Below, piece after piece: positions 20,109 through 46,610 of a stretch of 54,432 bases of DNA. Made by a program: the position numbers and the translations under genes. The stretch's first letter is position 1. The number at the start of each line of letters is the position of its first letter. This DNA is from a virus. The stretch is from the IMG/VR virus record IMGVR_UViG_3300027777_000047, positions 1 through 54,432 of that record. The stretch is one strand, 5' to 3'. The notes under the pieces were generated by a model, which worked only from the letters and a program-made list of their open reading frames with translations, did no database searches and was not told the origin of the DNA.

Positions 20109-22271
20109 ATGTTAGCCTATTCGCAGGTTAAGGGCACTACGCCCCATGCACACGTCACCCCCCCTGAGGTTATTAAATACTTAGCCGACCGCGGAATAAG
20201 TATCACCCTTGCCGCGCAGCTAGAGCTCAAAGTGCTTAGCGCGCAAGCCCTAATGGAGGCCGCACGGGGCATAGTTAGCGCATACGAGGACGACCGGTAC
20301 GCTATAGTGTTCCCCCACCATAGTCCACTGGGGTTTGAAATTGAGTGGTGGAGCGCTAGGCTCGTACCCCGCCGCCCCGCTGCTGACCCCACCCCCCTGC
20401 GGGTGATACACAGTTTTGCCGCTGCCGTTGACCCCACCCTGGCCCCAGCCTACAAACTAGGCAAGATGTTCTGCCCGCCAAGCACTCCGCCAGCAGCGTA
20501 TCTACCCCATGCAGCTACCTTACCCGACTGGACCAAGCTGCCCCGGGGCGCGCGGGTGTTCTTTCATGAGTCAGTCATAAAAGCGATCAATGGTGCGCGG
20601 TTGGGGCACTACAGCATCGGGCTAAACGGCGTGTGGGGTTGGTCTAGCCGCAAGCACCAAATAGCTCTGCTGCCCGAGATTAGAGACATACCTTGGCGCG
20701 CTTTAGAGCTTGAGCCTGTTATTTTGTTTGACACCAACATTAACACCAGCTTCCAAGTTGAGGAGGCCGCCAAGCGCTTAGCCGCTAAGCTGCTAGAACT
20801 TACCGGACGCACGGCGCGTATTCTGCGCATGCACACCAGTGCCGATTTACTTGGTGGTGCCGACTACGGGTTTGACGACTTTGCCGTTACTGTTGGCAAC
20901 ACCCACGCCAAGGCTTTGCTAGACACCCCTTGGCCCGACCTTGAGGAGATTGACATAAGCGAGGTCGAGCTTATGAAGTTCGCCTTGAACAGCAAAGTAG
21001 CCGTGGTGCGTAGTATGAGTAGGGTTGCCGATATTGAGAGCGGTGCTTTAATGACCACTAGCTCTTTTACCGAGCTTGTGTACGCGCACTATCAAGCCCA
21101 AGTGCCTTTGCCCGACGGCACTACTAAGGACGTCAACGTAGCCAAGCTCTGGCTAAAAGACGAGCGTAAGTTGCAGGTAGAGGGTTTGATGTACAGCCCC
21201 GGCCAACCCACCATCCACATGGACGCTGCCGGTAAGGCGTACCTCAACACATGGCGGGGTATGGGCTTAACCCCAGACCCCGGCCTTGTAGACCAGTGGC
21301 TTGGGCTGCTGAGCGCCAACCTTGGAGATTTAGACTTGCAGGAGTGGGTGCTTAACTGGCTGGCGTATCCGTTACAGCACCCGGGCGCTAAGTTGAACAC
21401 CCTGCTGTTGATATTTGGCCCTAGCGGCACGGGTAAAGACCTATTCCTCACACCCATGCACGCTATCTACGGCAACAACGCGGTTAAAGTGAGCAATGAC
21501 GAACTTAAGTCCACCTTTACAAGTCTGTACGCTGCGCGGCAGTTCATACACGCGGACGAACTTAAACGCACCCCCAGCGCCAGCGACAGCGTAAACCAAA
21601 AGATTAAAGGCATGGTCACCAACGCCACCATGACCGTTAACCGCAAAGGCGACCCCGAGTATAAGATCCGCAACGTAGCCAACTTAGCGATTACCAGCAA
21701 CTACTACGACTGTATCAAACTAGACGAGGACGACCGCAGAGCCGCTATTATACGTTGGAGCCCTGTTACCGAGGCCTTAGACATGCGCGGCATGCAGGGT
21801 TACTGGCGTCCGTTGGCCGCGTGGTTGACCAGCACCGCTGGGGCGGCAGCTATCTACGCTTACTTACTAGACCGTGACCTAACCGGGTTTGACCCCGCCG
21901 CGTGGGCTCCCACTACTGTGTGGAAAGAACAGGTGATAGACGCCGCGCGCTCCCCTATTGAGCGGTTTGCTGCTCAGCTTAAAGTAGAGCCCGAACTACA
22001 CTTGCCCCCGTTAACCGATGGCCGCGTGCTATTCACGGCTAAAGAACTTGCCATGTACCACTACGGCCTAGAACCCGCCAAGGGCCAGATAGACGCCTTG
22101 GCTAACGAACTCCGTAACCAGAATTTTGTACGCGCCAACCGCGACAAATCCATTAAAAGCAAGGGCGGTGGAGTTAACCGTTACTGGGTAGTTCAACGGG
22201 CCGACTTGCCCATACAAGACTGGCAAGACCCCACCGTGTGTGGGAAGCATTTAAGGGCACACGGACTTTAA
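20109..22271 (+). CDS. Primase-helicase, SF3 type
   Basis: 720 residues. The C-terminal half (about 400-640) is an SF3 helicase of the D5/DUF5906 kind: Walker A G-P-S-G-T-G-K-D at 437-444, Walker B around I-H-A-D-E-L, and the later I-T-S-N-Y sensor motif. The N-terminal half (20-300) follows the DUF3854 primase pattern with a TOPRIM-like core: F-F-H-E at 151-154 supplies the first acid, and the I-L-F-D-T-N at 205-210 replaces the usual D-S-D. It would start and unwind replication forks for the family A polymerase. First gene of the main replication operon. No strong ribosome binding site upstream, so the exact start is open. Confidence 0.85.
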   Translation: MLAYSQVKGTTPHAHVTPPEVIKYLADRGISITLAAQLELKVLSAQALMEAARGIVSAYEDDRYAIVFPHHSPLGFEIEWWSARLVPRRPAADPTPLRVIHSFAAAVDPTLAPAYKLGKMFCPPSTPPAAYLPHAATLPDWTKLPRGARVFFHESVIKAINGARLGHYSIGLNGVWGWSSRKHQIALLPEIRDIPWRALELEPVILFDTNINTSFQVEEAAKRLAAKLLELTGRTARILRMHTSADLLGGADYGFDDFAVTVGNTHAKALLDTPWPDLEEIDISEVELMKFALNSKVAVVRSMSRVADIESGALMTTSSFTELVYAHYQAQVPLPDGTTKDVNVAKLWLKDERKLQVEGLMYSPGQPTIHMDAAGKAYLNTWRGMGLTPDPGLVDQWLGLLSANLGDLDLQEWVLNWLAYPLQHPGAKLNTLLLIFGPSGTGKDLFLTPMHAIYGNNAVKVSNDELKSTFTSLYAARQFIHADELKRTPSASDSVNQKIKGMVTNATMTVNRKGDPEYKIRNVANLAITSNYYDCIKLDEDDRRAAIIRWSPVTEALDMRGMQGYWRPLAAWLTSTAGAAAIYAYLLDRDLTGFDPAAWAPTTVWKEQVIDAARSPIERFAAQLKVEPELHLPPLTDGRVLFTAKELAMYHYGLEPAKGQIDALANELRNQNFVRANRDKSIKSKGGGVNRYWVVQRADLPIQDWQDPTVCGKHLRAHGL

Positions 22272-22306
22272 AGCACGCTATAATTGCCTTGCCAGCAACC
22301 CGCTGG
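22268..22306 (+). promoter_or_regulatory. Palindromic -10 promoter with leader hairpin
   Basis: TTAAAGCACGCTATAAT (22268-22284) holds a TATAAT box with only the right half of the palindrome conserved. CCAGC and GCTGG (22292-22296, 22302-22306) form a leader hairpin, followed by AACTTAGGAG before the gene at 22337. Confidence 0.6.
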
Positions 22307-22336
22307 TGTTCTAATTAACTTAGGAGCATCCATACT

Positions 22337-22573
22337 ATGGGGCAAGTCAAACAATACTATTACAGCTGTCGTTCTTGCGGTGATTGCATAGACCCCGAGC
22401 GTTACGCGCTGGGTTACAGAGTGTGTTTACCGTGTGGCGAGCAAGCCGCGCGCGTAGAGCGCACTAGCTGGTGCGTGGTGCAGGAGTACAGCAAAGGCGC
22501 GTATCAGTTGGTGACGGCCAGTGCAGCTTCCGTAACCTTACGACAAACCAACCCCAAGGAGCAGCGCACATGA
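22337..22573 (+). CDS. Small zinc-ribbon-like protein
   Basis: 78 residues, TTAGGAG upstream. Cysteines at 11, 14, 17, 30 and 33 (C-R-S-C-G-D-C and C-L-P-C) form a DksA/TraR-type or zinc-ribbon metal site in the first 35 residues. The rest is short beta strands. Such small Zn proteins often bind RNA polymerase or DNA. The target here is unknown. Stop overlaps the next start (ATGA). Confidence 0.7.
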   Translation: MGQVKQYYYSCRSCGDCIDPERYALGYRVCLPCGEQAARVERTSWCVVQEYSKGAYQLVTASAASVTLRQTNPKEQRT

Positions 22574-22812
22574 CTAAAGTAGTTGCCGGACACAACGACC
22601 CGGGCTACCTGCCCGACGAAGACCCCATTGAGTGCGAAAACCTACAAGAGGCAATACGTTACCTCATGCAAGCAGTGGCCACATACTTCCGTATTGAAAT
22701 AGACGAGATAGAGCTTACCGTGCATGATGTAATGCGTTTCCAGCGGGCGGTAATGAACGCCGAGCCGGGCAGCACGTACATTTTCCGGGGCCATGCGTTC
22801 TGGGTGCACTAA
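22570..22812 (+). CDS. Hypothetical acidic early protein
   Basis: 80 residues from ATG 22570 (coupled ATGA). AAGGAG lies just upstream in the previous gene. Sequence: E-D-P-I-E-C-E-N-L-Q-E-A-I-R-Y-L-M-Q-A-V-A helix and E-I-D-E-I-E-L-T-V-H-D-V acidic stretch. No motif. Part of a three-gene unit between two promoters. Confidence 0.65.
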   Translation: MTKVVAGHNDPGYLPDEDPIECENLQEAIRYLMQAVATYFRIEIDEIELTVHDVMRFQRAVMNAEPGSTYIFRGHAFWVH

Positions 22813-22814
22813 AC

Positions 22815-23036
22815 ATGTACTACAAAGACTTTGGACCCTGCGTCCGCATTGAGTATTTAAACAGTCCGCGTGATCTAGCATACGACATCATGGTTTGCAC
22901 TAAACAGCCTAACGACACTTGGCTAGCCTATCGTGGCTTTAACAGTTTGAGCAACGACTACGCCTTTACCAGCGCCAAAGAGCTAGCAGTCGAGCTGGAA
23001 CAAAAATATAAAAATAGTTGTGCGCCGACTATATAG
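22815..23036 (+). CDS. Hypothetical early protein
   Basis: 73 residues, starting two bases after the preceding stop. Core Y-K-D-F-G-P-C-V-R-I-E-Y-L and a helical tail (S-A-K-E-L-A-V-E-L-E-Q-K-Y). No recognised family. The stop lies directly at the next promoter. Confidence 0.65.
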   Translation: MYYKDFGPCVRIEYLNSPRDLAYDIMVCTKQPNDTWLAYRGFNSLSNDYAFTSAKELAVELEQKYKNSCAPTI

Positions 23037-23074
23037 CACGCTATAATTAATTACCGGCCCAGCGGTTTTCTGGG
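23032..23074 (+). promoter_or_regulatory. Palindromic -10 promoter with leader hairpin
   Basis: TATAGCACGCTATAAT at 23032-23047, overlapping the stop of the upstream gene. TTGTGC lies 17 bp upstream as a weak -35. CCCAG/CTGGG (23058-23062, 23070-23074) forms a leader hairpin, followed by TACTAACTAGGAG before the gene at 23098. Confidence 0.7.
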
Positions 23075-23097
23075 TGTACTAACTAGGAGCATCTAGC

Positions 23098-23565
23098 ATG
23101 AAATCTTTAACTGCCGCGCTTGCTGACCGCAAAGCCGACATTGCCCGCCAAGCCTCTAATGTCAAAACACTGAGCCGGGTGGTAAAAGCGACTAACTTGG
23201 CCCGGGCGTTTGACCGCCTAGTGGCCCACTGCCCCCAAGCCGAGCTTATGGTGTACAGCTACAGCGTCTACATTGATGTGCCTGTAAAAAGCATGCAGCA
23301 CATGACTGACGCTTTAGAGTTTTTTGAGAATGAGCTGGGTGTCGAGTTCACCTCCACTAGAGACGAACCTACCGGCGGCGTGCGCCAGTTTGACATTGGC
23401 TGGCAGAGCGCCGAAAAGCTGGGCTTTTGGCTTTACGTCCGCGCGCTGATTAGGGGCAACGAAGACGACCCCACCGCCACCTGCAAACGCGTGCAGACCG
23501 GCGTTAAGATGGTTGAGCAACCAGTTTATGAAATACAGTGTGCTGAACAACTTGCTGTTGCATGA
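23098..23565 (+). CDS. Hypothetical early protein
   Basis: 155 residues with a basic N-terminal helix (K-S-L-T-A-A-L-A-D-R-K-A-D-I-A-R) and a later alpha/beta part (V-Y-S-Y-S-V-Y-I-D-V, L-G-F-W-L-Y-V-R-A-L-I). Single-gene unit with its own promoter, preceded by CTAGGAG. A small acidic-basic globular protein, not recognised. The early promoter suggests a regulatory or take-over role. Confidence 0.65.
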   Translation: MKSLTAALADRKADIARQASNVKTLSRVVKATNLARAFDRLVAHCPQAELMVYSYSVYIDVPVKSMQHMTDALEFFENELGVEFTSTRDEPTGGVRQFDIGWQSAEKLGFWLYVRALIRGNEDDPTATCKRVQTGVKMVEQPVYEIQCAEQLAVA

Positions 23566-23568
23566 GTT

Positions 23569-23611
23569 TATAGCACGCTATAATGTAGGTACTGGCCCGG
23601 CAGCTTCCGGG
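23569..23611 (+). promoter_or_regulatory. Palindromic -10 promoter with leader hairpin
   Basis: TATAGCACGCTATAAT at 23569-23584. CCCGG/CCGGG (23596-23600, 23607-23611) forms a leader hairpin, followed by CTAACTAGGAG before the gene at 23637. Same architecture as the unit at 23032. Confidence 0.7.
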
Positions 23612-23636
23612 ATTGCACTAACTAGGAGAGTTTTAA

Positions 23637-24470
23637 ATGGCTAATTTACGTATTCTACGCACCGGCAATGCCCTGACTTTGGCGGGTATTCGCCAAGCGT
23701 GTCCGGCGGTGTTTGCCACTGCCGAGGCCGTGGCCCCTACCCGGGGTCCCCGCTACGAGTATATCCCCACCATTGAGCCCCTTGAACGCCTGCTTGACCA
23801 AGGCTGGGGCGTATTTGAAGCCACCCAGAACCGTGTGCGCGTTGCTGGCAAAGAAGGCTTTTGCCGCCACAGCTTGCGTCTGCGCAAGCTAGACCAAGCC
23901 CTTGACCGCAACAAGTACGGCGGTGCCCTTGACGGCACTGGCGAACTTGTACTTACCAACGCACACGACGGCACCGCCGCCTACACGTTGACGGCAGGGT
24001 ATTTCCGGCTGGTGTGCAGCAATGGCATGACCACTGGCAAAGAGATTGCCGCGCACCGCATAATCCATACCAAGGGGCGCAGCACCGGCATGGTGATTGA
24101 CGTGGCTAGCCGCATCATCGAGGAAGACTTTCCTCGCATGATTGAGCAGATTGAAGGCTTTAAGCAGACCATACTTACTACCGAGCAAACTTACGAGCTT
24201 GCCGCCCACGCTATGGACTTGCGTTACGGCCTTGGCTTGAAACCCTTTAAAGCCGAAGACCTGCTTAAGGTGCGCCGCATGGTTGACGACGGACTTAGCG
24301 CGTGGTCGGTACTTAACCGCATACAGGAGAATGTGATGCAGGGCGGTTGGCATACCAAGAGCATGTTTACTGGCCGCAAGAGCAGCGTGCGTGCTGTTGA
24401 GGCTATTGGCCCCGTAGCCAAGATTAACGCTGGCTTGTGGACCAAAACCGAGGAGCTGTGCCATGGGTGA
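23637..24470 (+). CDS. DUF932-family protein
   Basis: 277 residues. G-Y-F-R-L-V-C-S-N-G-M-T-T-G near the centre (R-L-V-C-S-N-G) is the hallmark of the DUF932/DUF945 family found in phages and plasmids, and H-S-L-R-L-R and V-L-T-N-A-H-D-G support it. Its molecular function is unknown; it often lies beside replication and recombination genes. It is the first gene of a five- to seven-gene unit behind its own promoter. Confidence 0.8.
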   Translation: MANLRILRTGNALTLAGIRQACPAVFATAEAVAPTRGPRYEYIPTIEPLERLLDQGWGVFEATQNRVRVAGKEGFCRHSLRLRKLDQALDRNKYGGALDGTGELVLTNAHDGTAAYTLTAGYFRLVCSNGMTTGKEIAAHRIIHTKGRSTGMVIDVASRIIEEDFPRMIEQIEGFKQTILTTEQTYELAAHAMDLRYGLGLKPFKAEDLLKVRRMVDDGLSAWSVLNRIQENVMQGGWHTKSMFTGRKSSVRAVEAIGPVAKINAGLWTKTEELCHG

Positions 24471-24804
24471 TAGAGTACTTATGCAGTGCTGGAGCAGTAG
24501 CACCGGGGCCTTCGGGCCCGTGGTGTACGGCCATTGGGCCGGAGGCGACGCCCCTGTTATTGTGGCCCGACTTGCCCTGCGCATGGCAACCCGCCCGGGC
24601 GACGTGTACTACGCTAGTGCCCGCCTTGTGCAGGAGCTGTGCGCAGCAACCAGCGACCCCAATGGGTCGCTAGGCGTGAGTATTTGGAACACGGACCATA
24701 TACTTACTCCCGACGACAGCCACGGCGACGCTGGCTGTTGGCTAATTGATGTTAGCGACAACTTTAGCACCAAAATACTAGGAGCTAGTGGTGAACAATA
24801 TTAA
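24463..24804 (+). CDS. Hypothetical protein
   Basis: 113 residues, overlapping the end of the DUF932 gene. Alpha/beta pattern with G-D-R-V-L-M-Q-C-W-S-S-S, H-W-A-G-G-D-A-P-V-I-V-A-R-L-A and D-A-G-C-W-L-I-D-V-S. This reads like a compact phage protein often placed just after DUF932, but I cannot name it. Confidence 0.65.
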   Translation: MGDRVLMQCWSSSTGAFGPVVYGHWAGGDAPVIVARLALRMATRPGDVYYASARLVQELCAATSDPNGSLGVSIWNTDHILTPDDSHGDAGCWLIDVSDNFSTKILGASGEQY

Positions 24805-25027
24805 AAAAACCTACATTGTGTTTGTAAACAACATAGAGCGTGAAGTGGAGGCCACCAGCGCCGAAGACGCTATAGATCAAGTCTATGAAGACATTGGCTA
24901 CGACCCGGGCGAGGTATCCTGCGAAGAAGACGATGTACTTAGCATCTGCCAAGCGTGTAACGGCAGCGGCGAAGGAATGAACGAAGGCACCACTTGCCGA
25001 GCGTGCCACGGAAGGGGCGAGTCATGA
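24791..25027 (+). CDS. Small protein with DnaJ-type zinc motif
   Basis: 78 residues from GTG 24791; GTG 24788 is only 3 nt from GGAG, so the second is preferred. The N-terminal half is acidic, beta-alpha (Y-I-V-F-V-N-N-I-E-R-E-V-E-A). The C-terminus has C-Q-A-C-N-G-S-G and C-R-A-C-H-G-R-G, the two knuckles of a DnaJ-like Cys-rich zinc fold. No J domain. Could act as a small Zn-dependent partner, for example with host proteins. Overlaps both neighbours. Confidence 0.65.
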   Translation: MNNIKKTYIVFVNNIEREVEATSAEDAIDQVYEDIGYDPGEVSCEEDDVLSICQACNGSGEGMNEGTTCRACHGRGES

Positions 25028-25461
25028 AACATATGCTGCCCCGCTACCGCGAATTTGTGCGCGCTACCCTAGCCCGCCCCGACGCTAGCGTTGAAGAGGT
25101 TACCAGTGCCACCGCACTTGACCAGTGTATTGAATGGATAGACGACGTGCTACCTATGGTCACGTTGTTAGACGACGCCGGAGTGGGGCCCAAGCAACTT
25201 AGGCGCATACTTGAAGAAGCTGAGCACTTAGAGGAGATTTTAGAAGGCAACCGCATTCATACTTTAAATCAACTACAGCGCGTACTTGGCGACGTACAAA
25301 CCGCCAAGGCTGCACTTGGCACGGTACCCGCACCTACACCCTTACCCGCCACCGTGCGAGCTGCTGCGCAGGGGTCTGACGCGTTCAACGCCATGTTTGC
25401 CAGTACACCACCGTGGCCCACAGCGCCACGGCATCCTTACGACCGGAATTTTGAAACTTAA
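25024..25461 (+). CDS. Hypothetical helical protein
   Basis: 145 residues. ATG 25024 overlaps the upstream stop (ATGA). The middle is helical and acidic (L-R-R-I-L-E-E-A-E-H-L-E-E-I-L-E), a likely coiled coil at residues 60-100. The tail is Pro/Ala-rich and probably disordered. No motif to assign a function. Confidence 0.65.
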   Translation: MKHMLPRYREFVRATLARPDASVEEVTSATALDQCIEWIDDVLPMVTLLDDAGVGPKQLRRILEEAEHLEEILEGNRIHTLNQLQRVLGDVQTAKAALGTVPAPTPLPATVRAAAQGSDAFNAMFASTPPWPTAPRHPYDRNFET

Positions 25462-25469
25462 TACCCTGC

Positions 25470-25499
25470 TACAATATAACCAGCGCCCACACCGGGCGC
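25470..25499 (+). promoter_or_regulatory. Weaker early promoter with GC-rich leader hairpin
   Basis: TACAAT (25470-25475) lies upstream of GCGCCC/GGGCGC (25483-25488, 25494-25499), a short stable hairpin. It is followed by GGACCTAACTAA before the gene at 25518. It lacks the palindromic half-site, so it resembles the family only in the leader. Confidence 0.4.
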
Positions 25500-25517
25500 G
25501 CCAAGGACCTAACTAAT

Positions 25518-25757
25518 ATGCAACACTTATATGAACACCCCGGTAGCGGTGTATTTTTGAACGTAACCTACGTGCCCGCTACGCCTGCGCACAAGACCCA
25601 AATACAGGACGTGCGCGTTACCGACAGCACCTACCAGTCCGTAGGGCCAGACATTGCGCCCCTGCTGCACGCCACCCACCTGCTTGACACTACCGGCCCC
25701 GTGACTATGGCTACGCCGCTGCTGGAGCTTATCTCGGAGGACATTACCCATGGATGA
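25518..25757 (+). CDS. Hypothetical protein
   Basis: 79 residues. Beta-rich start (S-G-V-F-L-N-V-T-Y-V-P-A), then D-I-A-P-L-L-H-A-T-H-L-L and a C-terminal helix. Overlaps the next gene by 8 bp. Not recognised. Confidence 0.65.
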   Translation: MQHLYEHPGSGVFLNVTYVPATPAHKTQIQDVRVTDSTYQSVGPDIAPLLHATHLLDTTGPVTMATPLLELISEDITHG

Positions 25758-26163
25758 CCCCACCCTTGGCGACTTTGTAGTGCTTACCGCCACCCAGCTT
25801 GCCGATAAAGCAGACGAGCACTGGCGTATTAAGACTAAGCGTTTGGCTGCCGACAAAATTGCCGCTGCGCTTAAAACCGATGAGAGCGCACTTGAGGCTG
25901 CTATTATCAGCCAGATGCTGCACCAAAAGATTACCAGTATTGGTGGCAAGACCGTAATTTACGGCTTGCCCAAGCCCACTATGGAGCCCGTTGTTAGCGA
26001 CTGGGCGCTGTACTGGGCATTCATCAAGCAGACTGATGACATCAGTTTGTTTGAAAAGCGACCCGGACGGGCCGCTATTAAAGAGCGCTGGGGTTTGGGC
26101 GAAACCATACCCGGCGTTGTTCCGTTTGCTGTTTACAAACTATCTAAAACTGGAGTTAAATGA
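25750..26163 (+). CDS. Hypothetical helical protein
   Basis: 137 residues with GGAGG 9 nt upstream. N-terminal half helical (A-D-K-A-D-E-H-W-R-I-K-T-K-R-L-A-A-D-K), C-terminal half aromatic and basic (W-A-L-Y-W-A-F-I-K-Q, R-A-A-I-K-E-R-W-G). No motif I can assign. Located just before the ssDNA-binding candidate, so possibly replication-linked. Confidence 0.65.
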   Translation: MDDPTLGDFVVLTATQLADKADEHWRIKTKRLAADKIAAALKTDESALEAAIISQMLHQKITSIGGKTVIYGLPKPTMEPVVSDWALYWAFIKQTDDISLFEKRPGRAAIKERWGLGETIPGVVPFAVYKLSKTGVK

Positions 26164-26164
26164 C

Positions 26165-26386
26165 ATGAATACTTACAATGAGAGTAACAAAATTGGCCTT
26201 GCAAGGGTCGAAAAACAAATGGCAGTTGCTCGCGAGGTTGACTACAACCCCACTGTACGTGAAAATTTGGATAAGCGGATTGCTCATCTTGAGCACGAGC
26301 TTTCCGAAGCAAGAGCTAGCAGAGAGGCACTTGCCCCCTTGCTAGATATCAAAATCCGCGACATCCGTCGTGCGATGGACTATTGA
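26165..26386 (+). CDS. Small coiled-coil protein
   Basis: 73 residues starting at ATG 26165, overlapping the previous stop. Nearly all charged helix: L-A-R-V-E-K-Q-M-A-V-A-R-E, then K-R-I-A-H-L-E-H-E-L-S-E-A-R, consistent with a coiled coil from residue 8 to 60. Likely a dimeric accessory protein. Function not known. Confidence 0.6.
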   Translation: MNTYNESNKIGLARVEKQMAVAREVDYNPTVRENLDKRIAHLEHELSEARASREALAPLLDIKIRDIRRAMDY

Positions 26387-26407
26387 ACTAATTAGGAGTT
26401 ACTTATT

Positions 26408-27199
26408 ATGGCTACTACTGTCGTTGTACCAACCAAAAGCACTGCTGTTGCAGTGCCGTCGGCTAGCAGGTTTGCGGCGCTCGCTGCGCAAGCCAAACAA
26501 GCCGCCGCCAAAGAGCGCCCCAACCTGAGCAAAATTAGCTTAAAGTCGGGGGTTATAAGCTACGGGGGTCAGCCTGTAAAGGGCAACGTACTGCCGTGCA
26601 TCATACTTGCCGCTAGCTACAAAAACGCCCTGTACAAGGGCCGTTACGACCCCAACAACATTGTTAACCCGAACTGCTTTAGCCTTGCCGAGACCGATGA
26701 CGACATGGTGCCTGACAGCGTTGTTACTAACCCCGAGCACAGCCAGTGCACCGGCTGCCCCAACCGCGAATGGGGCAGCGACCCCAACGGTGGCCGGGGC
26801 AAAGCCTGCAAAGAAACCCGCCGTTTGGTGCTGCTGCCCGCTAGCGTGCTTGACGCCGACGACCCTTTAAAGGCCATTAAAGAGGGCGAGCTTGCTGTGC
26901 TGGACATCCCCGTTATGAGCGTTAAGTTCTACAGCCAGTATGTCAACATACTAGCGGGTAGCATCGGGTTGCCAGCATGGGCCGTAGTTACCGACATTAG
27001 CACCAAGCCCGACCCCAAGAGCCAGTTTGTTGTGCAGTTCCAAGGCATTAAGGCCGCTGGCGGTGACGACATACTAGACGCCCTTGAGGCCCGCCGTAAC
27101 GAGGCCATACGTATTAGCCTAGTTGGCTACGACGCCTCCTCGGACGAGGAGTCTGAGCCCGAGTTGCCTGCTGGCAAAAAAGCTGCCAAGAAGTTTTAA
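26408..27199 (+). CDS. Putative ssDNA-binding / replication accessory protein
   Basis: 263 residues with AATTAGGAG upstream. A disordered Ala/Ser-rich start is followed by a beta-rich domain containing C90, C114-x2-C117 and C134, a Zn-ribbon-like insertion. C-terminal tail is acidic (S-S-D-E-E-S-E-P-E-L-P) before a short Lys stretch. Acidic tails and a beta core upstream of a phage DNA polymerase are typical of SSB proteins (compare T7 gp2.5 with acidic tail, or T4 gp32 with a Zn site). Family not confirmed. If not SSB, it is a structural replication accessory. Confidence 0.5.
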   Translation: MATTVVVPTKSTAVAVPSASRFAALAAQAKQAAAKERPNLSKISLKSGVISYGGQPVKGNVLPCIILAASYKNALYKGRYDPNNIVNPNCFSLAETDDDMVPDSVVTNPEHSQCTGCPNREWGSDPNGGRGKACKETRRLVLLPASVLDADDPLKAIKEGELAVLDIPVMSVKFYSQYVNILAGSIGLPAWAVVTDISTKPDPKSQFVVQFQGIKAAGGDDILDALEARRNEAIRISLVGYDASSDEESEPELPAGKKAAKKF

Positions 27200-27206
27200 A
27201 GTTTGT

Positions 27207-27289
27207 ACCCCGTGCCATCGTTAGTCAGTTGCCAAACTCACCGTGGACACTCCCTGCACGGTGCACTTAGGCACGGGGTTTTTTACCAC
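27207..27289 (+). terminator. Candidate terminator between the SSB-like gene and the polymerase gene
   Basis: CCCCGTGCC (about 27208) can pair with GGCACGGGG (ends near 27281), which is followed directly by TTTTTT. The loop is long and contains a second internal hairpin (CCGTG/CACGG). Position immediately upstream of the polymerase start suggests control of polymerase level by termination or read-through. Confidence 0.5.
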
Positions 27290-27347
27290 ATACGGGGGAA
27301 AGCGAATTGCCTTGTGCTGCCGGTACCCCACCCTATTTGGATGTTTA

Positions 27348-29210
27348 ATGCACACCATTGACTTTGAAACAGAAGCTATACGTGGCGCACCCAGCTATAG
27401 CCCGCCCAAGCCCGTGGGCGTGGCACTTAAACGGGGCGTAGACGCGTCAATTTACCTTGCGTGGGGCCACCTTACGGGCAACAATACAACGTGGCCCCTA
27501 GCGCGTGCCGAGGTACTGCGTTTTTTAAAGCAAGCCGACAAAGCCGACGGCTGGCTAGCCCACAACGCCGCCTTTGAAGCCGCCATACTTGAGCACTACT
27601 TTGACTACAAAGCCAAAGACCCACTTATGGTGCACGACACCATGTTTTTACTTTTCCTCACCAACCCTTACGCTATGAGCTTTGGCTTAAAGCAAAGCGC
27701 CGAACGTGAGCTTGGTATGCCCCCCGACGAACAAACCGACCTTATGCACTGGGTGCTGAGCAACGTACCACAAGCCAAACGTAGCGACTGGGGCGCCTAC
27801 ATTAGCAAAGCCCCCGCCGAGCTTTGCGGTGTGTACGCCATTGGCGACACAGACCGTACATTCCTTCTTTACGAGAAGTTATGGCCCCGTATGATGTCCA
27901 TGGGTATGTTAGAGGCCTACCGCCGCGAGCAAAAGCTAAGCCCCATACTTGCAGAATCTACACGGCGTGGTGTGCGGCTTGATATGGATAGGCTCGCCGA
28001 CGACATAGTTATCTACACCGACGCCATGCGGGTTGCGGAACAATATGTACACTCGCGCCTAGGAGAGTTCAATATCGATAGCGATGAGGAGCTAGCTAAT
28101 GCGCTTGACAAAACAGGTATGGTTACGGACTGGGTGCTCACCCCCACAGGTAAACGGTCTACCGCACGCAAAAACCTTGTGGGTAGAGTTAAAGATGCCG
28201 ACCTTTTACATTTTATGGCATATAGAGGTGTTCTGGCTACGTGCCTAGGCACCTTTGCTGGCCCGTGGCTTGAGCAAGCCTTTGCCGAAGGCGGGCGCCT
28301 ACACCCTAGCTGGAACCAAACGCGGGGCGAAAAGGGTAGCGGCGGCGACATGTCCGGCACCAAGACCGGGCGCATGAGCTGCAAAGCACCCAACTTGCAA
28401 AACCCACCTAACGACTTTGAAACCTTGGTGGTGCCCCAGCAAATAGCAGACCTACTACGCCTAGAGGCACAGCGCACCAACCGCATTATACATCCCGTGA
28501 TGCACATGCGACAATACTTGCTGCCTGAGGAGGGCCATGTGTGGATAAAGCGTGACTTTAGCGCACAGGAGATGCGTGTAATGTCCCACTACGCCGAGGG
28601 CAGCTTGTACCAAGCATTTAAAGAAAACCCCAGCACCGACCCCCACGCCGCCGTGATGGCTATTATTAAAGCCCAAACCGGCATGACCATGCTGCGCAAG
28701 CATGTTAAGATTATTGGATTTGGCATTATGTACGGCATGGGCGTTGACAAGCTAGCCGATAGTATGGGAGTCGATAAAGATGAAGGCACAGCCCTCCGCA
28801 ACGCCTATTTCGCTGCTCTTCCCGAAATCAGGGAACTATCGCTTGACACTAGAAATCGCGGTAAACGAGGCGAGTTTATCCGCACTTGGGGCGGACGTGT
28901 CTATTATAGAGAGCCTAACCTCGATAGAGATCTTAGTTACAAGCTGCTCAACTATCTCATACAAGGCAGCAGTGCAGACCAAACCAAGCAGTCTATTATC
29001 GATTACGATAAAGAACGTGCACCAGACGAGGTAATGCTTGCCGCTGTGCATGACGAAATTAACGCTAGCGTCCCCATTGACAACAAGGCCGCTGGTATGG
29101 CTAGACTACAACTAGCAATGGACAAAGACCGTTTTGATGTACCTTTTAGAAGCGAAGGCTATGCTGGCCCCAACTGGGCAGATATTGAAAATTATGAACC
29201 AACAAACTAA
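27348..29210 (+). CDS. DNA polymerase, family A, with 3'-5' exonuclease
   Basis: 620 residues from ATG 27348. An upstream frame extends to 27243 but runs through the terminator hairpin and lacks a site. The proofreading domain shows D5-F-E7 (Exo I), A-H-N-A-A-F-E near 71-77 (Exo II) and Y163-x3-D167 (Exo III). The polymerase domain shows motif A R-D-F-S-A-Q-E with Asp 403, motif B R450-x3-K454-x7-Y462-G463, and motif C H-D-E at 568-570. There is no 5' nuclease domain. Residue F458 is at the E. coli Phe762 position. This is the replicative polymerase. Stop overlaps the next gene. Confidence 0.92.
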   Translation: MHTIDFETEAIRGAPSYSPPKPVGVALKRGVDASIYLAWGHLTGNNTTWPLARAEVLRFLKQADKADGWLAHNAAFEAAILEHYFDYKAKDPLMVHDTMFLLFLTNPYAMSFGLKQSAERELGMPPDEQTDLMHWVLSNVPQAKRSDWGAYISKAPAELCGVYAIGDTDRTFLLYEKLWPRMMSMGMLEAYRREQKLSPILAESTRRGVRLDMDRLADDIVIYTDAMRVAEQYVHSRLGEFNIDSDEELANALDKTGMVTDWVLTPTGKRSTARKNLVGRVKDADLLHFMAYRGVLATCLGTFAGPWLEQAFAEGGRLHPSWNQTRGEKGSGGDMSGTKTGRMSCKAPNLQNPPNDFETLVVPQQIADLLRLEAQRTNRIIHPVMHMRQYLLPEEGHVWIKRDFSAQEMRVMSHYAEGSLYQAFKENPSTDPHAAVMAIIKAQTGMTMLRKHVKIIGFGIMYGMGVDKLADSMGVDKDEGTALRNAYFAALPEIRELSLDTRNRGKRGEFIRTWGGRVYYREPNLDRDLSYKLLNYLIQGSSADQTKQSIIDYDKERAPDEVMLAAVHDEINASVPIDNKAAGMARLQLAMDKDRFDVPFRSEGYAGPNWADIENYEPTN

Positions 29211-31586: not shown

Positions 31587-32090
31587 ATGAATATCTTCTT
31601 CTTAGATCGGTGTCCATTCACCGCTGCGCGGCATCAACATGACAAGCATGTTGTAAAGATGTGCTTAGAGACCGCGCAAATCCTGTGCACCGTGGGACAT
31701 AGCGTAGGCGCGCAAGTGCCCTACAAACCCACGCACGCAAAGCACCCATCTGTACTATGGGCAGGCGCAAACTGCCATAACTTTGAATGGCTTGTTGACC
31801 ATGGCCTTGGCTTGTGTGATGAATACACTCACCGCTACGGCAAAGTGCATGCTTGCCAGCGCGTTATTGATGACTTGCAGCACGTAGGTAGACTGCTGCC
31901 CTTTACTTTGTGGACCGACCCCCCACAGTGCATGCCCCCCGAATACCAATGCCCCAACGACCCCGTTTTGGCTTACCGCACCTACTACATTCAGTGCAAA
32001 ATTAGCCAGTCTAAATGGACTAACCGCGAGCCCCCATACTTCGTATTAGATTCCCTACTGCCCAGCACGGGAATTAAAAGCATGGTATAA
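31587..32090 (+). CDS. Conserved phage protein with DKHVVKM motif
   Basis: 167 residues. The sequence D-K-H-V-V-K-M-C-L-E-T-A-Q-I-L at 19-33, then K-P-T-H-x-x-H-P-S-V-L-W and C-D-E-Y-T-H-R-Y-G-K, is strongly conserved in many tailed phages, where I recall it as hypothetical. The conserved His and Asp residues suggest metal-binding or enzyme activity, perhaps a small nuclease. No assignment is safe. It starts the unit that also contains the modification genes. Confidence 0.65.
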   Translation: MNIFFLDRCPFTAARHQHDKHVVKMCLETAQILCTVGHSVGAQVPYKPTHAKHPSVLWAGANCHNFEWLVDHGLGLCDEYTHRYGKVHACQRVIDDLQHVGRLLPFTLWTDPPQCMPPEYQCPNDPVLAYRTYYIQCKISQSKWTNREPPYFVLDSLLPSTGIKSMV

Positions 32091-32643: not shown

Positions 32644-33411
32644 ATGCAAATCTTCATCCCCACCTATGGGCGGGCAGGTAGCCAGACTACCTACCGAGCA
32701 CTGGTGGGGGCGGGCCTTATAGTCACGCTCGTGGTCCAAGACCGCGAGCGTGATTTGTATTGTGCCTACCCCCACGTAGAAGTGCTACCGCCGCATATAC
32801 AAACCATTGCGCCCACGCGCCAATACATATTGGACCACTTAGTGCACTCGCGCACGTTTTGCATGGTAGACGACGACTTAGTGTTTTACGCCCGCCGCAC
32901 TGACGACCCCACCAAGCTACGTGACATCACCCCCACCGAGCTAGCGGCTGCATTTGCAGACATGGGGATGCACCTCAACTTGCCCGGCGTGGCGCATGTG
33001 GGTTTTGCCGCCCGCGAAGGCGCTAACCGCAATGTTGCCGAGTACTTGGATAACACGCGCATTATGCGAGTACTAGGCTACCACGCGCCCACGCTGACCC
33101 ATTTAGGGCTTAAGTTTGACGCCATGGAGGTGATGGAGGACTTTCACGTAGCACTTAGCCTGCTAGAGGCTGGCTACAGCAACCGGCTTATGAACCACTA
33201 CGCCCACAACCAAAAAGGGTCCGGCACTGCGGGGGGTTGCTCACACTTCCGTACACCGGAACTACACGCCAAAAACGCACACTTGTTGGCTGCGCTGCAC
33301 CCCGATGTGGTGAAAGTAGTGCAAAAAGAAACCAAGGGCGCATGGGGCGGGGGCACCCGCACAGACGTCAACATTCAATGGAAGAAGGCATATGGTAAAC
33401 GCACTAGCTAG
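32644..33411 (+). CDS. TAGT-like glycosyltransferase (DNA base modification, inferred)
   Basis: 255 residues. Begins I-F-I-P-T-Y-G-R-A-G (a GT-A fold start). A C-M-V-D-D-D-L-V-F-Y motif at 73-82 supplies the DxD metal site (D76-D78). Later E-D-F-H-V-A-L-S-L-L and H-Y-A-H-N-Q-K-G-S-G fit the TET/JBP-associated glycosyltransferase (TAGT) family from phages. These transfer sugars to 5-hydroxymethylated bases in DNA. Here the hydroxymethyl donor would come from the ThyA-like protein downstream, not from a TET oxygenase, which I do not see. Overlaps the next gene by 20 bp. Confidence 0.65.
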   Translation: MQIFIPTYGRAGSQTTYRALVGAGLIVTLVVQDRERDLYCAYPHVEVLPPHIQTIAPTRQYILDHLVHSRTFCMVDDDLVFYARRTDDPTKLRDITPTELAAAFADMGMHLNLPGVAHVGFAAREGANRNVAEYLDNTRIMRVLGYHAPTLTHLGLKFDAMEVMEDFHVALSLLEAGYSNRLMNHYAHNQKGSGTAGGCSHFRTPELHAKNAHLLAALHPDVVKVVQKETKGAWGGGTRTDVNIQWKKAYGKRTS

Positions 33412-34216
33412 CTACCCCCGCACCAGTGACCTTGCGTACTGGATAAACGAACGCGAGTCTATACGCCTGCGCAGACAAGCCGGTGCACCCGCCCCTTGGA
33501 CCATTGACCCCGACATGGCTAATGTGAGGTATTGCAATGTACATCGTGAAGACGATAAGGTTACTAAGTGGCTTCGTACTAACCCTGTGTATAGCGGCCC
33601 TGACGTTGCTGTTTGGCGCGTTGTGCTTAGCCGCATGGTCAACCGTATTAGCAGCTTGGAGGCTATTCAACTCTACGCTGAAGAGGATAGTTTGGTGGAC
33701 ATAAAAGCTATGCTAAAAGAGCTGCGCAAGCGTTGGACTATCTGGGGCAATGCGTACACCATAAGCACCTGCGGTAAGAGCATGGACAAAGTGGACTACG
33801 TACTTGACCACGTAGTTGCTGCTGTTAAACAGCGAGCGTTTATTTTTGACACCCTTGACAGTACACATCAACAACTAATGCGGGTTGACGGCCTTGGCAG
33901 TTTTTTGGCCGGCCAAGTGGTGGCAGACCTTAAAAACATGCCGGGGCATCCGCTAAGCGCAGCACCCGACTTTGACACCTTTGCAGTGCCCGGTCCGGGT
34001 AGCCTAAAGGGGCTTGCGGCATACTTTGGGGGGGTAGCTACACCGGGGCAGTTTAAAGCCCTGCTGGGCACCGCCACGGCCCAAGTGGCACCCCTGTTGG
34101 CAAATTACGTAACCCCCATACACGCACAGGACATGCAAAACTGTTTTTGTGAATTTAGTAAGTACATCCGCGTGCGCGAAGGCGGTAGAGCAAGGAACAA
34201 CTATGCACCTAATTAA
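33392..34216 (+). CDS. Alpha-glutamyl/putrescinyl thymine pyrophosphorylase-like protein
   Basis: 274 residues. W-I-N-E-R-E-S-I-R-L-R-R near 17-28, P-A-P-W-T-I-D-P-D-M, R-Y-C-N-V-H-R-E-D-D-K-V-T-K-W-L and G-L-G-S-F-L-A-G-Q-V-V-A-D-L match the phage family that acts on 5-hydroxymethyluracil in DNA (aGPT-PPlase/hmdU DNA kinase helical domain family). The homologues activate hydroxymethyl groups by pyrophosphorylation for later replacement. The domain lies between a glycosyltransferase and a ThyA-like protein, overlapping both, which supports a base modification pathway. Confidence 0.7.
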   Translation: MVNALASYPRTSDLAYWINERESIRLRRQAGAPAPWTIDPDMANVRYCNVHREDDKVTKWLRTNPVYSGPDVAVWRVVLSRMVNRISSLEAIQLYAEEDSLVDIKAMLKELRKRWTIWGNAYTISTCGKSMDKVDYVLDHVVAAVKQRAFIFDTLDSTHQQLMRVDGLGSFLAGQVVADLKNMPGHPLSAAPDFDTFAVPGPGSLKGLAAYFGGVATPGQFKALLGTATAQVAPLLANYVTPIHAQDMQNCFCEFSKYIRVREGGRARNNYAPN

Positions 34217-35186
34217 AGTACGGAACATTAACCAAGCCGTTGACGAGGGCTTTAACTGGCTTAAAGTAGCCGGTGTGGACGAACCCAGCCGCAACGGCAC
34301 CGTGCGGGTGGCTCCCGGCCCGGTAGTTACCGAGTACACACACCCCACCGAGCGTGTGCTTTTTAACACAGACCGAGATGCTAACCCCGTGTTCCACTTA
34401 CTAGAGTCTTTGTGGATGTTGGCGGGGCGGCAGGACAGCGGCTTTTTACTACCCTACAACGCCCGCATGGCCGAATACGCCGAGCCTAATGGCGATATCC
34501 ACGGGGCCTACGGCTACCGCTGGCGCAACATGTTTGGCATAGACCAAGTGTTAGAAATTGTGCACGAGCTACGCAAATCGCCCAGCAGTAGACAGTGCGT
34601 TATGCAGATGTGGTCTGCTACGGCCGACCTTGGCTGTACCGCTAAAGACCGCCCCTGCAACACGCACATCTATTTTGACACTAGACCCTGCGCTACCGGC
34701 GCACGTAGCTTAAACATGACCGTGTGCTGCCGCAGTAACGACGCTCTTTGGGGTGCCTACGGCGCTAACGCGGTGCACTTTAGCGTGTTGCAAGAACTTA
34801 TGGCGCTGGGCATTGGAGTGCCCGTGGGCGTGTACAGACAGTTTAGCAATAACTTCCACGCATATACATCGGTGCCTTTAGCGGCGCAGTGGTTAAAGCA
34901 CCCCCCGGCATACGAACCCACCGCCTACCCACCCGTAATACCGTTGTTGACACCATTAGAAACGATTGAAGACTTTTACATGGACTGCCGTGCCTTGTGC
35001 AACCCACGCGCCGTGCAGACGTATGTAACTAACTTCTTTAACCAAGTGGTAGTGCCCTTAAAAACCGCCTACGACGCCCGCAAACTAGGTGCCCGCACTT
35101 GGCGCTTGCAGCTAGACCACATGCCCCACTGCGACTGGAAGGTGGCCTTTATTGAATGGACCGAGAGGAGACAACATGTCAGCTAA
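34203..35186 (+). CDS. ThyA-like dUMP/dCMP hydroxymethylase or thymidylate synthase
   Basis: 327 residues, AAGGA 8 nt upstream. Nucleophile Cys152 in D-R-P-C-N-T-H, R-S-N-D at 177-180 and N189 in G-A-N-A-V-H-F-S are the ThyA-superfamily core (compare L-P-P-C-H and R-S-x-D-x-x-x-G-x-P-F-N). The G-A-Y-G-A-N-A variant is typical of phage family members that may make 5-hydroxymethylpyrimidine nucleotides, using methylene-tetrahydrofolate and water instead of reduction. Plain thymidylate synthase activity cannot be excluded from sequence. The gene order with two modification enzymes favours the hydroxymethylase role. Confidence 0.75.
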   Translation: MHLIKVRNINQAVDEGFNWLKVAGVDEPSRNGTVRVAPGPVVTEYTHPTERVLFNTDRDANPVFHLLESLWMLAGRQDSGFLLPYNARMAEYAEPNGDIHGAYGYRWRNMFGIDQVLEIVHELRKSPSSRQCVMQMWSATADLGCTAKDRPCNTHIYFDTRPCATGARSLNMTVCCRSNDALWGAYGANAVHFSVLQELMALGIGVPVGVYRQFSNNFHAYTSVPLAAQWLKHPPAYEPTAYPPVIPLLTPLETIEDFYMDCRALCNPRAVQTYVTNFFNQVVVPLKTAYDARKLGARTWRLQLDHMPHCDWKVAFIEWTERRQHVS

Positions 35187-35427
35187 CGATACCCAAGTGG
35201 CCGGTACCCACTATCACACCAAGGGCGCTGCTCTACAGCACTGGGACCTTGTAGCCATGTTTGAGTGGGACTATTTTCAAGGCCAAATTACCAAATACTT
35301 AATGCGTTGGAAGTACAAGCACAAAACCCCGGACGCTAGACTGGAAGACTTACGCAAGGCCCGCCACTTTTTAGACAAGTACATTGAGCTTGAGCAGGCG
35401 AAAGCCGAGCAATGCAGCACGCTATAA
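35176..35427 (+). CDS. DUF3310-family protein
   Basis: 83 residues with GAGAGGAG upstream. Motifs G-T-H-Y-H..Q-H-W-D-L-V-A-M, F-Q-G-Q-I-T-K-Y-L-M-R-W and L-E-D-L-R-K-A-R-H-F-L-D match the DUF3310 family, sometimes annotated as nucleotide kinase in phages. In a modification operon such a protein could help convert the modified monophosphate, which is speculative. Overlaps the ThyA-like gene by 11 bp. Confidence 0.75.
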   Translation: MSANDTQVAGTHYHTKGAALQHWDLVAMFEWDYFQGQITKYLMRWKYKHKTPDARLEDLRKARHFLDKYIELEQAKAEQCSTL

Positions 35428-44702: not shown

Positions 44703-46610
44703 TTAGGGCTTGGGTCTATTTTTCTTGAGCCAGCGTATAGCCTCTAGTGCGTCGTGCAGTGTGCTAGTGTCGTAGCCATCGGGGTTGCGCAATACATCTT
44801 TAACTTCGGGCACGCTCCACACCCCGCGCCGCACAGGTATGGCGGGGGCCAAGGTGGAATCGGTGTACTCGGGGGCGGCGGTAAACCATTTGGTCAAGTC
44901 TTTTAACTCTTTAGGGTCTGGCGGTACGCTGCGGATGTTAAATTTGTCTTTCCTAATTGGCCGGGGCGGTATGGTCTTGGTAGTAAGGCTGTAAATACCA
45001 AGCTGGTCTGCTATGGGTATGTCAAAAGTACCGGGGGCGTAGGCGTTACCCATGGGGTAGGGTGCATACTTGTTGGGTACGTCCATGGTTTGCTCAGAGT
45101 AGCGGGCGCGAGTCTCGCCTTTGTCGCCGTAGTAAATGCTAAGTGCCTCGTCACGTGAGGTGGGTATACCCCCAGCAACGCGGCTGCGCTTAATCCAATC
45201 GGCACTAGTGCCTATAGTAATGTTCTCGCCCTTAGCAACTCGGCCTTGGTCTATGGCGTGTTGAATCTCGTGCAGCATAAGGCCACGGCTGTAGTCGTCT
45301 TTATTTACATCTTCCCACGCTGCTTTGTTCATAACAATTTCATAGTTATTAACGTCGTGGTGTCCTGCAACACCCTGACCAAGCTCGGTTTGAGTGCCAA
45401 TTCTCACTTTGTAGTTTTTAAGTTCGGGGTGGCGGTAATACAGATTTGGATGGTGCAGCACCTCATTTAATGGTACCGCCTCGGAAGAAAGCATAGGGGC
45501 GTGCAAATCTTGTTCAGCGTCGTGAATAATTAAGTTAAAGTCGGCTTCATTGCCGCCCTTGTTTTCCACTTTCTGCATCAAGTCCCACGCTTTTTTGGTC
45601 TTAGGGAGTCGACCCTCCGTATAGGCTTGTAAGGCCTCTTTAGCGTCGTCTATTTTCTGTGCTACGTCTGGCCGCGCAGTGCGTATGGCTTTGTCCCCCG
45701 CCCAGACAGACTTAGTGTCGTCAATACGGATAAAGTGCCCCTCATCGGTCTTGTAGGTCTGGGTGGCTTTCCAAACCTCCTCGGGTGTCTTGCCCTGCCT
45801 AATAAGCCGGTCGTAGTCGCGCATCTCGTACTTGTCGGCGGGGCCCAGAATACCCCGCTGTGCTGCCGCACTACCCGCGCGCACGCTGGGGGCCTCAGCA
45901 ATAAACTTACCAAATTTAAGTGCCCTGCTTGCGATTGGTGCGGCAAACATGGCGGCATCTACAACGTCGGGTTTTATTTGTAAAGTCTCGCCACTGCCGG
46001 TAGTAAGCCGGTCGCCATACGCGGCACCCTTAACAACACGATCGGCGGCGGCGGCGGGCTCGGTAAGAGCGTCAACCGCAGGGGCCAACACGTCAGGTAA
46101 CAACGCCTTAACCGCTTTGCGACCCCCAGCCGTGCCTGCGGCCATTTTGTCGCCCAACCAATCTAGTACAGGGTATTTAGCTTGCCAAGCAGTAACCTCG
46201 GTAGTGCCCGCAGTGTGGTCAGGATTTACAGGGTGGTCTTTTTTCCATTGCTCAATGCGGGCAACGTAGTCTACAGTCTCTTTGGGCGGGGTGTCCTCCC
46301 GTTTGCGCTCAGCGGTAGGACCACGGTTGTAAGCCTTTAAAGCCCGTGTAGTGTCGCCGCCAAATTGTTTGTGTAGCTTGTCTAAGTACCGGGCCCCAAC
46401 GTCTAAGTTAACAGCGGGGTCGGCAACGTCGCTAGGCTCTAAGCCGTGAGCGCTGGCTACTATCTGCATAGGGCCAACGGCCCCTTTTTTAGACACCGCA
46501 CGGTCGTCCCCCGCGCTCTCCACTGCACGCACAGCGGGCAGCAACTCCTCCGGGAAGTCGTACGTCCGGGGGTGCTTAGCCATCCACGCGTCTAGGGCTT
46601 CTTTACTCAT
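44703..46610 (-). CDS. Ejection protein: SLT lytic transglycosylase fused to a zinc metallopeptidase-like domain
   Basis: 635 residues from ATG 46610, coupled to the upstream ATP-grasp gene. Residues 18-105 form an SLT domain: A-V-E-S-A-G-D with the catalytic Glu at 31, G-A-V-G-P-M-Q-I and A-L-K-A-Y-N-R-G-P. Residues 380-530 carry L-M-L-H-E-I-Q-H-A-I-D (H447, E448, H451) and the downstream G-E-T-R-A-R-Y-S-E motif, as in large polyvalent phage proteins with metallopeptidase-like domains. It likely opens peptidoglycan during DNA entry. A similar fusion is seen in T7-like gp16-type proteins, though the protease part is not. Confidence 0.8.
   Translation of the reverse strand: MSKEALDAWMAKHPRTYDFPEELLPAVRAVESAGDDRAVSKKGAVGPMQIVASAHGLEPSDVADPAVNLDVGARYLDKLHKQFGGDTTRALKAYNRGPTAERKREDTPPKETVDYVARIEQWKKDHPVNPDHTAGTTEVTAWQAKYPVLDWLGDKMAAGTAGGRKAVKALLPDVLAPAVDALTEPAAAADRVVKGAAYGDRLTTGSGETLQIKPDVVDAAMFAAPIASRALKFGKFIAEAPSVRAGSAAAQRGILGPADKYEMRDYDRLIRQGKTPEEVWKATQTYKTDEGHFIRIDDTKSVWAGDKAIRTARPDVAQKIDDAKEALQAYTEGRLPKTKKAWDLMQKVENKGGNEADFNLIIHDAEQDLHAPMLSSEAVPLNEVLHHPNLYYRHPELKNYKVRIGTQTELGQGVAGHHDVNNYEIVMNKAAWEDVNKDDYSRGLMLHEIQHAIDQGRVAKGENITIGTSADWIKRSRVAGGIPTSRDEALSIYYGDKGETRARYSEQTMDVPNKYAPYPMGNAYAPGTFDIPIADQLGIYSLTTKTIPPRPIRKDKFNIRSVPPDPKELKDLTKWFTAAPEYTDSTLAPAIPVRRGVWSVPEVKDVLRNPDGYDTSTLHDALEAIRWLKKNRPKP

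What the first reader, a model, noticed from the sequence alone, without database searches (positions are those of the whole stretch)
32644..35427. Putative thymine/cytosine hypermodification cassette
Four overlapping genes encode a TAGT-like glycosyltransferase, an alpha-glutamyl/putrescinyl thymine pyrophosphorylase-like protein, a ThyA-like hydroxymethylase or synthase with the G-A-Y-G-A-N-A variant, and a DUF3310 protein. Known phage systems use a hydroxymethylated pyrimidine that is then pyrophosphorylated or glycosylated. A combination of both enzyme types without an obvious TET oxygenase is notable and suggests a modified base in this phage.
Basis: partly seen in the sequence, partly recalled or inferred. 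Interest (0 to 1): 0.85.

Follow-up and report, generated by a model that had tools for sequence, protein, structure and literature searches.

The report
Phage operon predicted to sugar-coat thymines
An uncultivated phage carries a compact gene set that probably makes 5-hydroxymethyluracil in place of some thymine and attaches a sugar to it, using the slot where better-known phages keep a DNA kinase, which suggests that phages swap the final chemistry of a shared thymine-modification machine.

Summary
The cassette is real: four overlapping genes at 32644-35427 encode an intact TAGT (PF20691, GT-A fold), an HMUDK_hel protein (PF18723, formerly 'aGPT-Pplase1'), a ThyA-family enzyme closest to the hydroxymethylases of M6/YuA-type phages, and a weak DUF3310 protein. 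The ThyA homologue carries the uracil-type Asn177, pointing to 5-hydroxymethyl-U, not cytosine. The 'pyrophosphorylase' is only the helical domain of the 5-hmdU DNA kinase; its P-loop kinase and the amino-acid:DNA transferase (ADDT) were not found. The helical-protein model resembles HhH DNA glycosylases and the ADDT-family enzyme PaMx11 gp46. Across 115 non-redundant loci the helical gene lies beside a TAGT (64), a kinase (30) or a putative GT-B-like protein (10), never a kinase together with a glycosyltransferase. Partner identity changes at least 19 times on its tree; two viruses with 90% identical helical proteins differ in this slot. Best reading: an operon making glycosylated 5-hmU, in which the helical protein presents the flipped base to an exchangeable enzyme. 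Chemistry is inferred, not shown. TAGT co-location with these genes was noted before (PMC9599517); I did not find partner exchange described in the held papers.

The parts
32644..33411 (+). TAGT-family GT-A glycosyltransferase, 255 aa, with intact DDD motif (Asp76-78), Asp166 and Arg203; proposed to transfer a sugar to 5-hydroxymethyl-U in DNA
   Evidence: PF20691 E 8e-19; phrog_842 E 4e-44; AF2 pLDDT 94.6; GT-A fold, GalNAc-T2 Z 15.8; conserved residues
33392..34216 (+). HMUDK_hel / aGPT-Pplase1 protein, 274 aa, no kinase domain; HhH-glycosylase-like helical fold; proposed DNA-binding, base-presenting partner of the TAGT
   Evidence: PF18723 E 2e-37; AF2 pLDDT 96.1; best structural matches PaMx11 gp46 (Z 11.0) and HhH DNA glycosylases
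34203..35186 (+). ThyA-family pyrimidine hydroxymethylase, 327 aa (ATG 34203), catalytic Cys152 and uracil-type Asn; proposed dUMP hydroxymethylase
   Evidence: PF00303 E 1e-19; phrog_5131 E 1e-96; 43-44% identity to YuA, M6 and Ab18 enzymes over 98%; residues
35176..35427 (+). DUF3310-like small protein, 83 aa (ATG 35176), conserved neighbour of the operon; role unknown
   Evidence: PF11753 E 9e-4, below cut-off; phrog_5839 E 5e-20; similar gene found in about 40 related loci

Best explanation
The four genes form a thymine hypermodification operon whose end product is glycosylated 5-hydroxymethyl-deoxyuridine. Step 1 (inferred from homology and active-site residues): the ThyA homologue converts dUMP to 5-hydroxymethyl-dUMP. 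Step 2 (assumed): host or phage kinases make the triphosphate, which is incorporated into DNA. Step 3 (inferred from fold and family): the helical HhH-like protein binds DNA and presents the flipped 5-hmU. Step 4 (inferred): the TAGT transfers a sugar from a nucleotide sugar to the hydroxymethyl oxygen. In relatives the same helical protein is paired instead with a P-loop 5-hmdU DNA kinase, followed by ADDT, so the helical protein looks like a shared substrate-presenting part and the neighbouring enzyme like an exchangeable one. Shown by computation: gene content, families, folds, key residues, mutual exclusion and repeated exchange of the neighbour. Not shown: any activity, the sugar, or a TAGT-helical protein complex.
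For: Families, folds and motifs. Uracil-type Asn177 and catalytic Cys in the ThyA homologue (PMC8670742). In YuA and Ab18 the same place in the operon holds a P-loop kinase. 115 non-redundant helical-protein loci: TAGT 64, kinase 30, GT-B-like 10, none 11, never kinase with a GT; in the viral scan driven by the helical protein alone, 77 of 79 have exactly one class. Whole-record search: kinase in 11 of 11 kinase records and 0 of 39 GT records; ADDT in 8 of 11 and 0 of 39. With at least 3.5 kb upstream held, ADDT in 16 of 26 kinase loci and 0 of 53 GT loci, Fisher p 2e-10. Partner state changes at least 19 times on the tree. L086 and L089: helical proteins 90% identical, helical-ThyA DNA 84% identical, but two TAGTs in one and a kinase in the other.
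Against: No chemistry is demonstrated. Two complete phage records have a TAGT plus ThyA (MW202897) or kinase plus ADDT plus ThyA (MW202557) without a detectable helical gene, so the helical protein is not always needed. Structural match Z 11 is middling for a helical protein and Foldseek gave no match under E 0.001; helical versus ADDT profile comparison was weak (probability 8%, E 0.004). The GT-B-like partners rest on weak similarity only. Characterised TAGT of T6 acts on an already glucosylated hmC (PMC13216743). Hydroxymethylase versus ordinary thymidylate synthase cannot be settled by sequence alone (PMC5977210).
Confidence: 0.7

Rival explanations
1. The TAGT acts alone on 5-hmU in DNA and the helical protein has a separate role, for example limiting modification to certain sequences, protecting 5-hmU from repair, or a remnant of the kinase pathway.
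For: MW202897 carries a TAGT and ThyA without the helical gene; T6 and DLP_6 TAGTs are not beside one (PMC13216743).
Against: The helical gene is kept beside the TAGT in 64 non-redundant loci, usually overlapping, with the same invariant residues as in kinase loci, which is not what a remnant would show.
Confidence: 0.2
2. The operon modifies cytosine: the ThyA homologue makes 5-hydroxymethyl-dCMP and the TAGT glycosylates 5-hmC as in T-even phages.
For: The best-known TAGT, of T6, acts on modified hmC (PMC13216743).
Against: Asn, not Asp, at position 177 in the window and in all homologues that align there; closest homologues belong to phages with thymine modifications (PMC6449724 abstract). 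No AGT or T4-beta-GT match in the window (the second search had no control that rang).
Confidence: 0.07
3. The ThyA homologue is an ordinary thymidylate synthase for nucleotide supply and the TAGT modifies something other than DNA; the genes merely share an operon.
For: phages often carry thymidylate synthases; sequence alone cannot separate the two activities (PMC5977210).
Against: Similarity to the YuA/M6 type (E 1e-70) is far stronger than to solved thymidylate synthases (E about 1e-8), His147 is replaced by Asn as in that group, and the order TAGT-helical-ThyA is conserved across divergent viruses.
Confidence: 0.05

Closest known systems
5-hmdU kinase pathway of Pseudomonas phages M6, YuA, Ab18 and PaMx11
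   Same: Homologous ThyA-type dUMP hydroxymethylase (43-44% identity) and HMUDK_hel protein in the same order, with DUF3310 downstream
   Different: No P-loop kinase (PF18748), no ADDT (PF18724) and no amino-acid tailoring genes found; a TAGT sits in the kinase position
TAGT (PF20691) of T6 and related phages, beta-glucosyl-HMC-alpha-glucosyltransferase
   Same: Same family and GT-A fold (PMC13216743)
   Different: T6 TAGT adds a second sugar to glucosyl-hmC made with AGT; here the partner set points to uracil and no AGT match was found
HTVC023P-type pelagiphages (PMC9599517)
   Different: That paper reports co-location in one phage group; it does not, in the passages read, describe replacement of the kinase or partner exchange
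Base J (beta-glucosyl-hydroxymethyluracil) of kinetoplastids
   Same: Predicted product class: glycosylated 5-hydroxymethyluracil (established knowledge)
   Different: Base J is made by oxidation of thymine in DNA by JBP proteins; here hydroxymethylation would occur on the nucleotide. Sugar and linkage here are unknown

Membership tests
TAGT (PF20691) | Match above the curated cut-off over the whole profile | tested here: met
   68.8 bits against 27.5, profile 1-205 of 205
TAGT (PF20691) | GT-A fold with metal-binding acidic motif | tested here: met
   GT-A model pLDDT 94.6; GalNAc-T2 Z 15.8; DDD 76-78 invariant
TAGT (PF20691) | Transfers sugar to a modified base in DNA | not testable with these tools
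   Needs biochemistry
HMUDK_hel (PF18723) | Match above the curated cut-off over most of the profile | tested here: met
   129.6 bits against 25, profile 5-275 of 281
5-hmdU DNA kinase pathway | P-loop kinase domain HMUDK_HMUD1 (PF18748) | tested here: not met
   None in the window, found in 11 of 11 kinase-type records with the same search; own profile also negative
5-hmdU DNA kinase pathway | Amino acid:DNA transferase ADDT (PF18724) | tested here: not met
   None in the window, found in 8 of 11 kinase-type records; own profile also negative
dUMP hydroxymethylase of the ThyA family | Catalytic Cys and uracil-specifying Asn177 | tested here: met
   Cys146 and Asn177 equivalents present; residue role PMC8670742
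dUMP hydroxymethylase of the ThyA family | Releases hydroxymethyl rather than methyl product | not testable with these tools
   Only supported by closeness to the YuA/M6 type
T-even 5-hmC glucosylation system | Cytosine-type Asp at ThyA position 177 | tested here: not met
   Asn in the window
TET/JBP-based modification systems | TET/JBP oxygenase (PF12851) encoded nearby | tested here: inconclusive
   No match in the window or 34 relatives, but no control rang
HhH DNA glycosylase superfamily | HhH-GPD-type fold | tested here: inconclusive
   Consistent structural matches Z 7-9.5 to many glycosylases and Z 11 to PaMx11 gp46; Foldseek best E 0.18

The most novel reading that the evidence does not exclude
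The HMUDK_hel protein is a general 5-hydroxymethyluracil-presenting platform that works in trans with interchangeable enzymes (kinase, GT-A or GT-B glycosyltransferase), and the TAGT form, common among uncultivated phages, makes a glycosylated thymine, a base-J-like nucleotide made by a route without thymine oxidation.
Probability: 0.45. Interest if true: 0.8.

Novelty: new variant of a known kind. Interest (0 to 1): 0.6.

Why it matters
PMC13216743 reports that 288 of 753 phage genomes with such glycosyltransferases carry a TAGT without AGT or BGT and that their function is undefined. This operon gives a concrete, testable answer for one group: they would glycosylate 5-hydroxymethyluracil together with a helical partner. 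It also reassigns the 'aGPT-Pplase1' protein from a kinase part or pyrophosphorylase to a likely shared substrate-presenting protein, which would change how such genes are annotated, and it predicts a DNA base modification that may blunt restriction and CRISPR defences.

Tried and rejected
Cytosine pathway: rejected as main reading on Asn177. A kinase or ADDT elsewhere in the window: not found by own profiles or Pfam. TAGT-helical fusion as direct proof of interaction: none among the helical-protein loci; the 855-residue ORF in L130 carries no recognisable fused domain and looks like an open frame running to the locus edge. GT-B-like partners: only weak support (Glyco_transf_4 E 0.0014 and 0.0046); PHROGs and PDB searches gave nothing, so they are reported as putative. 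PDB sequence search for the helical profile gave only a chance match. Helical versus ADDT profile comparison: weak. Lee et al. 2022, Iyer et al. 2013 and Burke et al. 2021 are not held, so earlier description of a TAGT-aGPT-Pplase1 association there cannot be excluded. Nucleotide search found no close relative among annotated phages.

Full report
The window is an IMG/VR virus record of 54,432 bases. Its two ends share about 0.6 kb at 92-94% identity, so the record may be near-complete, but IMG/VR classes it as linear and absence of a gene is therefore not absolute. It encodes a terminase, portal, major head protein, family A DNA polymerase and primase; no close DNA relative is held among annotated phages for 20109-29210.

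The cassette. Four genes overlap by 11-20 bases on the + strand downstream of a SNF2-type helicase. TAGT, 32644-33411: PF20691 E 8e-19 over the whole profile; AlphaFold2 pLDDT 94.6; GT-A fold with GalNAc-T2 as best structural match, Z 15.8 over 223 residues; Asp76-78, Gly197-198 and Arg203 invariant in 35 homologues. Helical protein, 33392-34216: PF18723 HMUDK_hel E 2e-37 and no other domain. ThyA homologue, 34203-35186. DUF3310-like, 35176-35427, below the Pfam cut-off but supported by PHROGs.

Uracil rather than cytosine. The ThyA homologue is 43-44% identical over 98% of its length to the enzymes of YuA, M6 and Ab18. Aligned to E. coli thymidylate synthase and to the CMP hydroxymethylase MilA (sequences as printed), it and all its homologues that align there have Asn at position 177, where MilA has Asp; the catalytic Cys is kept and His147 is Asn in the whole group but one. 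PMC8670742 describes residue 177 as the switch between dUMP and dCMP. PMC5977210 warns that hydroxymethylase and thymidylate synthase are hard to tell apart by sequence, so the hydroxymethylase assignment stays an inference.

What the 'pyrophosphorylase' is. In YuA and Ab18 the helical gene follows a small P-loop gene, annotated 'terminase small subunit', that matches the kinase domain PF18748 (weakly in Ab18) and precedes the ThyA gene; Ab18 ORF9 is ADDT (PF18724). In the window the TAGT stands in the kinase position. Own profiles and Pfam searches of the whole window found neither kinase nor ADDT.

Comparative test. Loci were gathered with the TAGT, the helical protein and a helical-protein alignment, and classified by neighbours. 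After clustering at 90% identity there are 115 loci: TAGT 64, kinase 30, GT-B-like 10, none 11 within 2.5 kb, and none with a kinase and a glycosyltransferase together. Counting only the viral scans driven by the helical protein: TAGT 51, kinase 19, GT-B-like 7, none 2. The first TAGT scan was biased towards TAGT and contributes 10 of the 64. Searched over whole records, the kinase is in 11 of 11 kinase-type records and 0 of 39 TAGT or GT-B-like records, and ADDT in 8 of 11 against 0 of 39 (three kinase records passed without ADDT). With at least 3.5 kb upstream held, ADDT is in 16 of 26 kinase loci and 0 of 53 GT loci.

Exchange, not descent. On a tree of the 115 helical proteins the partner state changes at least 19 times among labelled rows; the label is clustered more than in shuffles, as expected, but no class is one clade (quick tree with 36 weakly supported forks). 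The clearest case is L086 against L089: helical proteins 90% identical, 84% DNA identity through the helical and ThyA genes, similar sequence upstream, yet two TAGT genes in one and one kinase gene in the other. L040 (kinase, ADDT) and L041 (GT-B-like) are a second pair, helical proteins 73% identical. The GT-B-like class rests on weak evidence: one family reached Glyco_transf_4 at E 0.0014 and 0.0046; other searches were empty.

Fold of the helical protein. The model has pLDDT 96.1. VIA-align 2 puts PaMx11 gp46, the 5-PmdU glycinyltransferase (8z2n), first at Z 11.0 over 211 residues, then the queuine salvage enzyme DUF2419 and many HhH DNA glycosylases at Z 7-9.5. Foldseek alone found no match under E 0.001, and a profile comparison with ADDT was weak. 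A DNA-binding, base-flipping role fits, but is inferred. Invariant residues (Arg21, Asn49, Arg52, Asp55, Asp179, Asp193, Gly201-Pro202-Gly203, Cys253-Glu254, Lys257) are shared by kinase-type and GT-type members.

Mechanism proposed. dUMP to 5-hmdUMP by the ThyA homologue; incorporation into DNA; recognition and presentation of 5-hmU by the helical protein; glycosylation by the TAGT. Relatives with two TAGTs (LuckyBarnes, L086) may add two sugars, as T6 does on cytosine. Weak point: two complete phage records have TAGT plus ThyA, or kinase plus ADDT plus ThyA, without a detectable helical gene, so the helical protein may help rather than be essential.

What was known. PMC9599517 noted thymidylate synthase, aG/PT-PPlase1 and sometimes a beta-glucosyl-HMC-alpha-glucosyltransferase together in pelagiphages. 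PMC13216743 lists 288 of 753 phage genomes with a solitary TAGT of undefined function. The main papers on thymine hypermodification and on TAGT are not held, so priority for the association cannot be judged fully. I rate it a new variant of a known kind.

Noticed in passing
window 3648-5228 (-): SAM-dependent methyltransferase with a C-terminal glycosyltransferase-9-like part, encoded among the structural genes.
   Followed up: no
window 46603-47910 (-): ATP-grasp protein similar to phosphoribosylglycinamide synthetase (PurD) in the tail region; no PHROG match.
   Followed up: no
window, whole: Strong lack of some palindromes: AAGCTT 0 found against 17.9 expected, CTGCAG 1 against 20.6; suggests past pressure from restriction enzymes despite the predicted modification.
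   Followed up: no
window 1-619 and 53859-54432: The two ends are 92-94% identical over about 0.6 kb with a small length difference: either redundant ends of a circular genome or repeated gene sequence.
   Followed up: partly
window 31587-32090 (+): Protein with weak similarity to pyrimidine-dimer DNA glycosylase and strong match to phrog_624, just upstream of the cassette.
   Followed up: no
L164:3749-7786: In a Helicobacteraceae genome bin, helical and ThyA-like genes follow a TIR-SLOG protein; PMC13092281 lists a thymidylate synthase and a 5-hmdU kinase among validated defence domains.
   Followed up: partly
L146, L143: Alphaproteobacterial genomes carry helical plus ThyA-like genes near recA without a kinase or TAGT found.
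   Followed up: no
L092:1471-2532, L052:6916-7980: A SPASM radical SAM protein lies between TAGT and the helical gene, a possible further tailoring enzyme.
   Followed up: no
L009:7365-7997, L036:5623-6294: FkbM-type methyltransferase next to the TAGT or GT-B-like gene, a possible sugar O-methylation.
   Followed up: no
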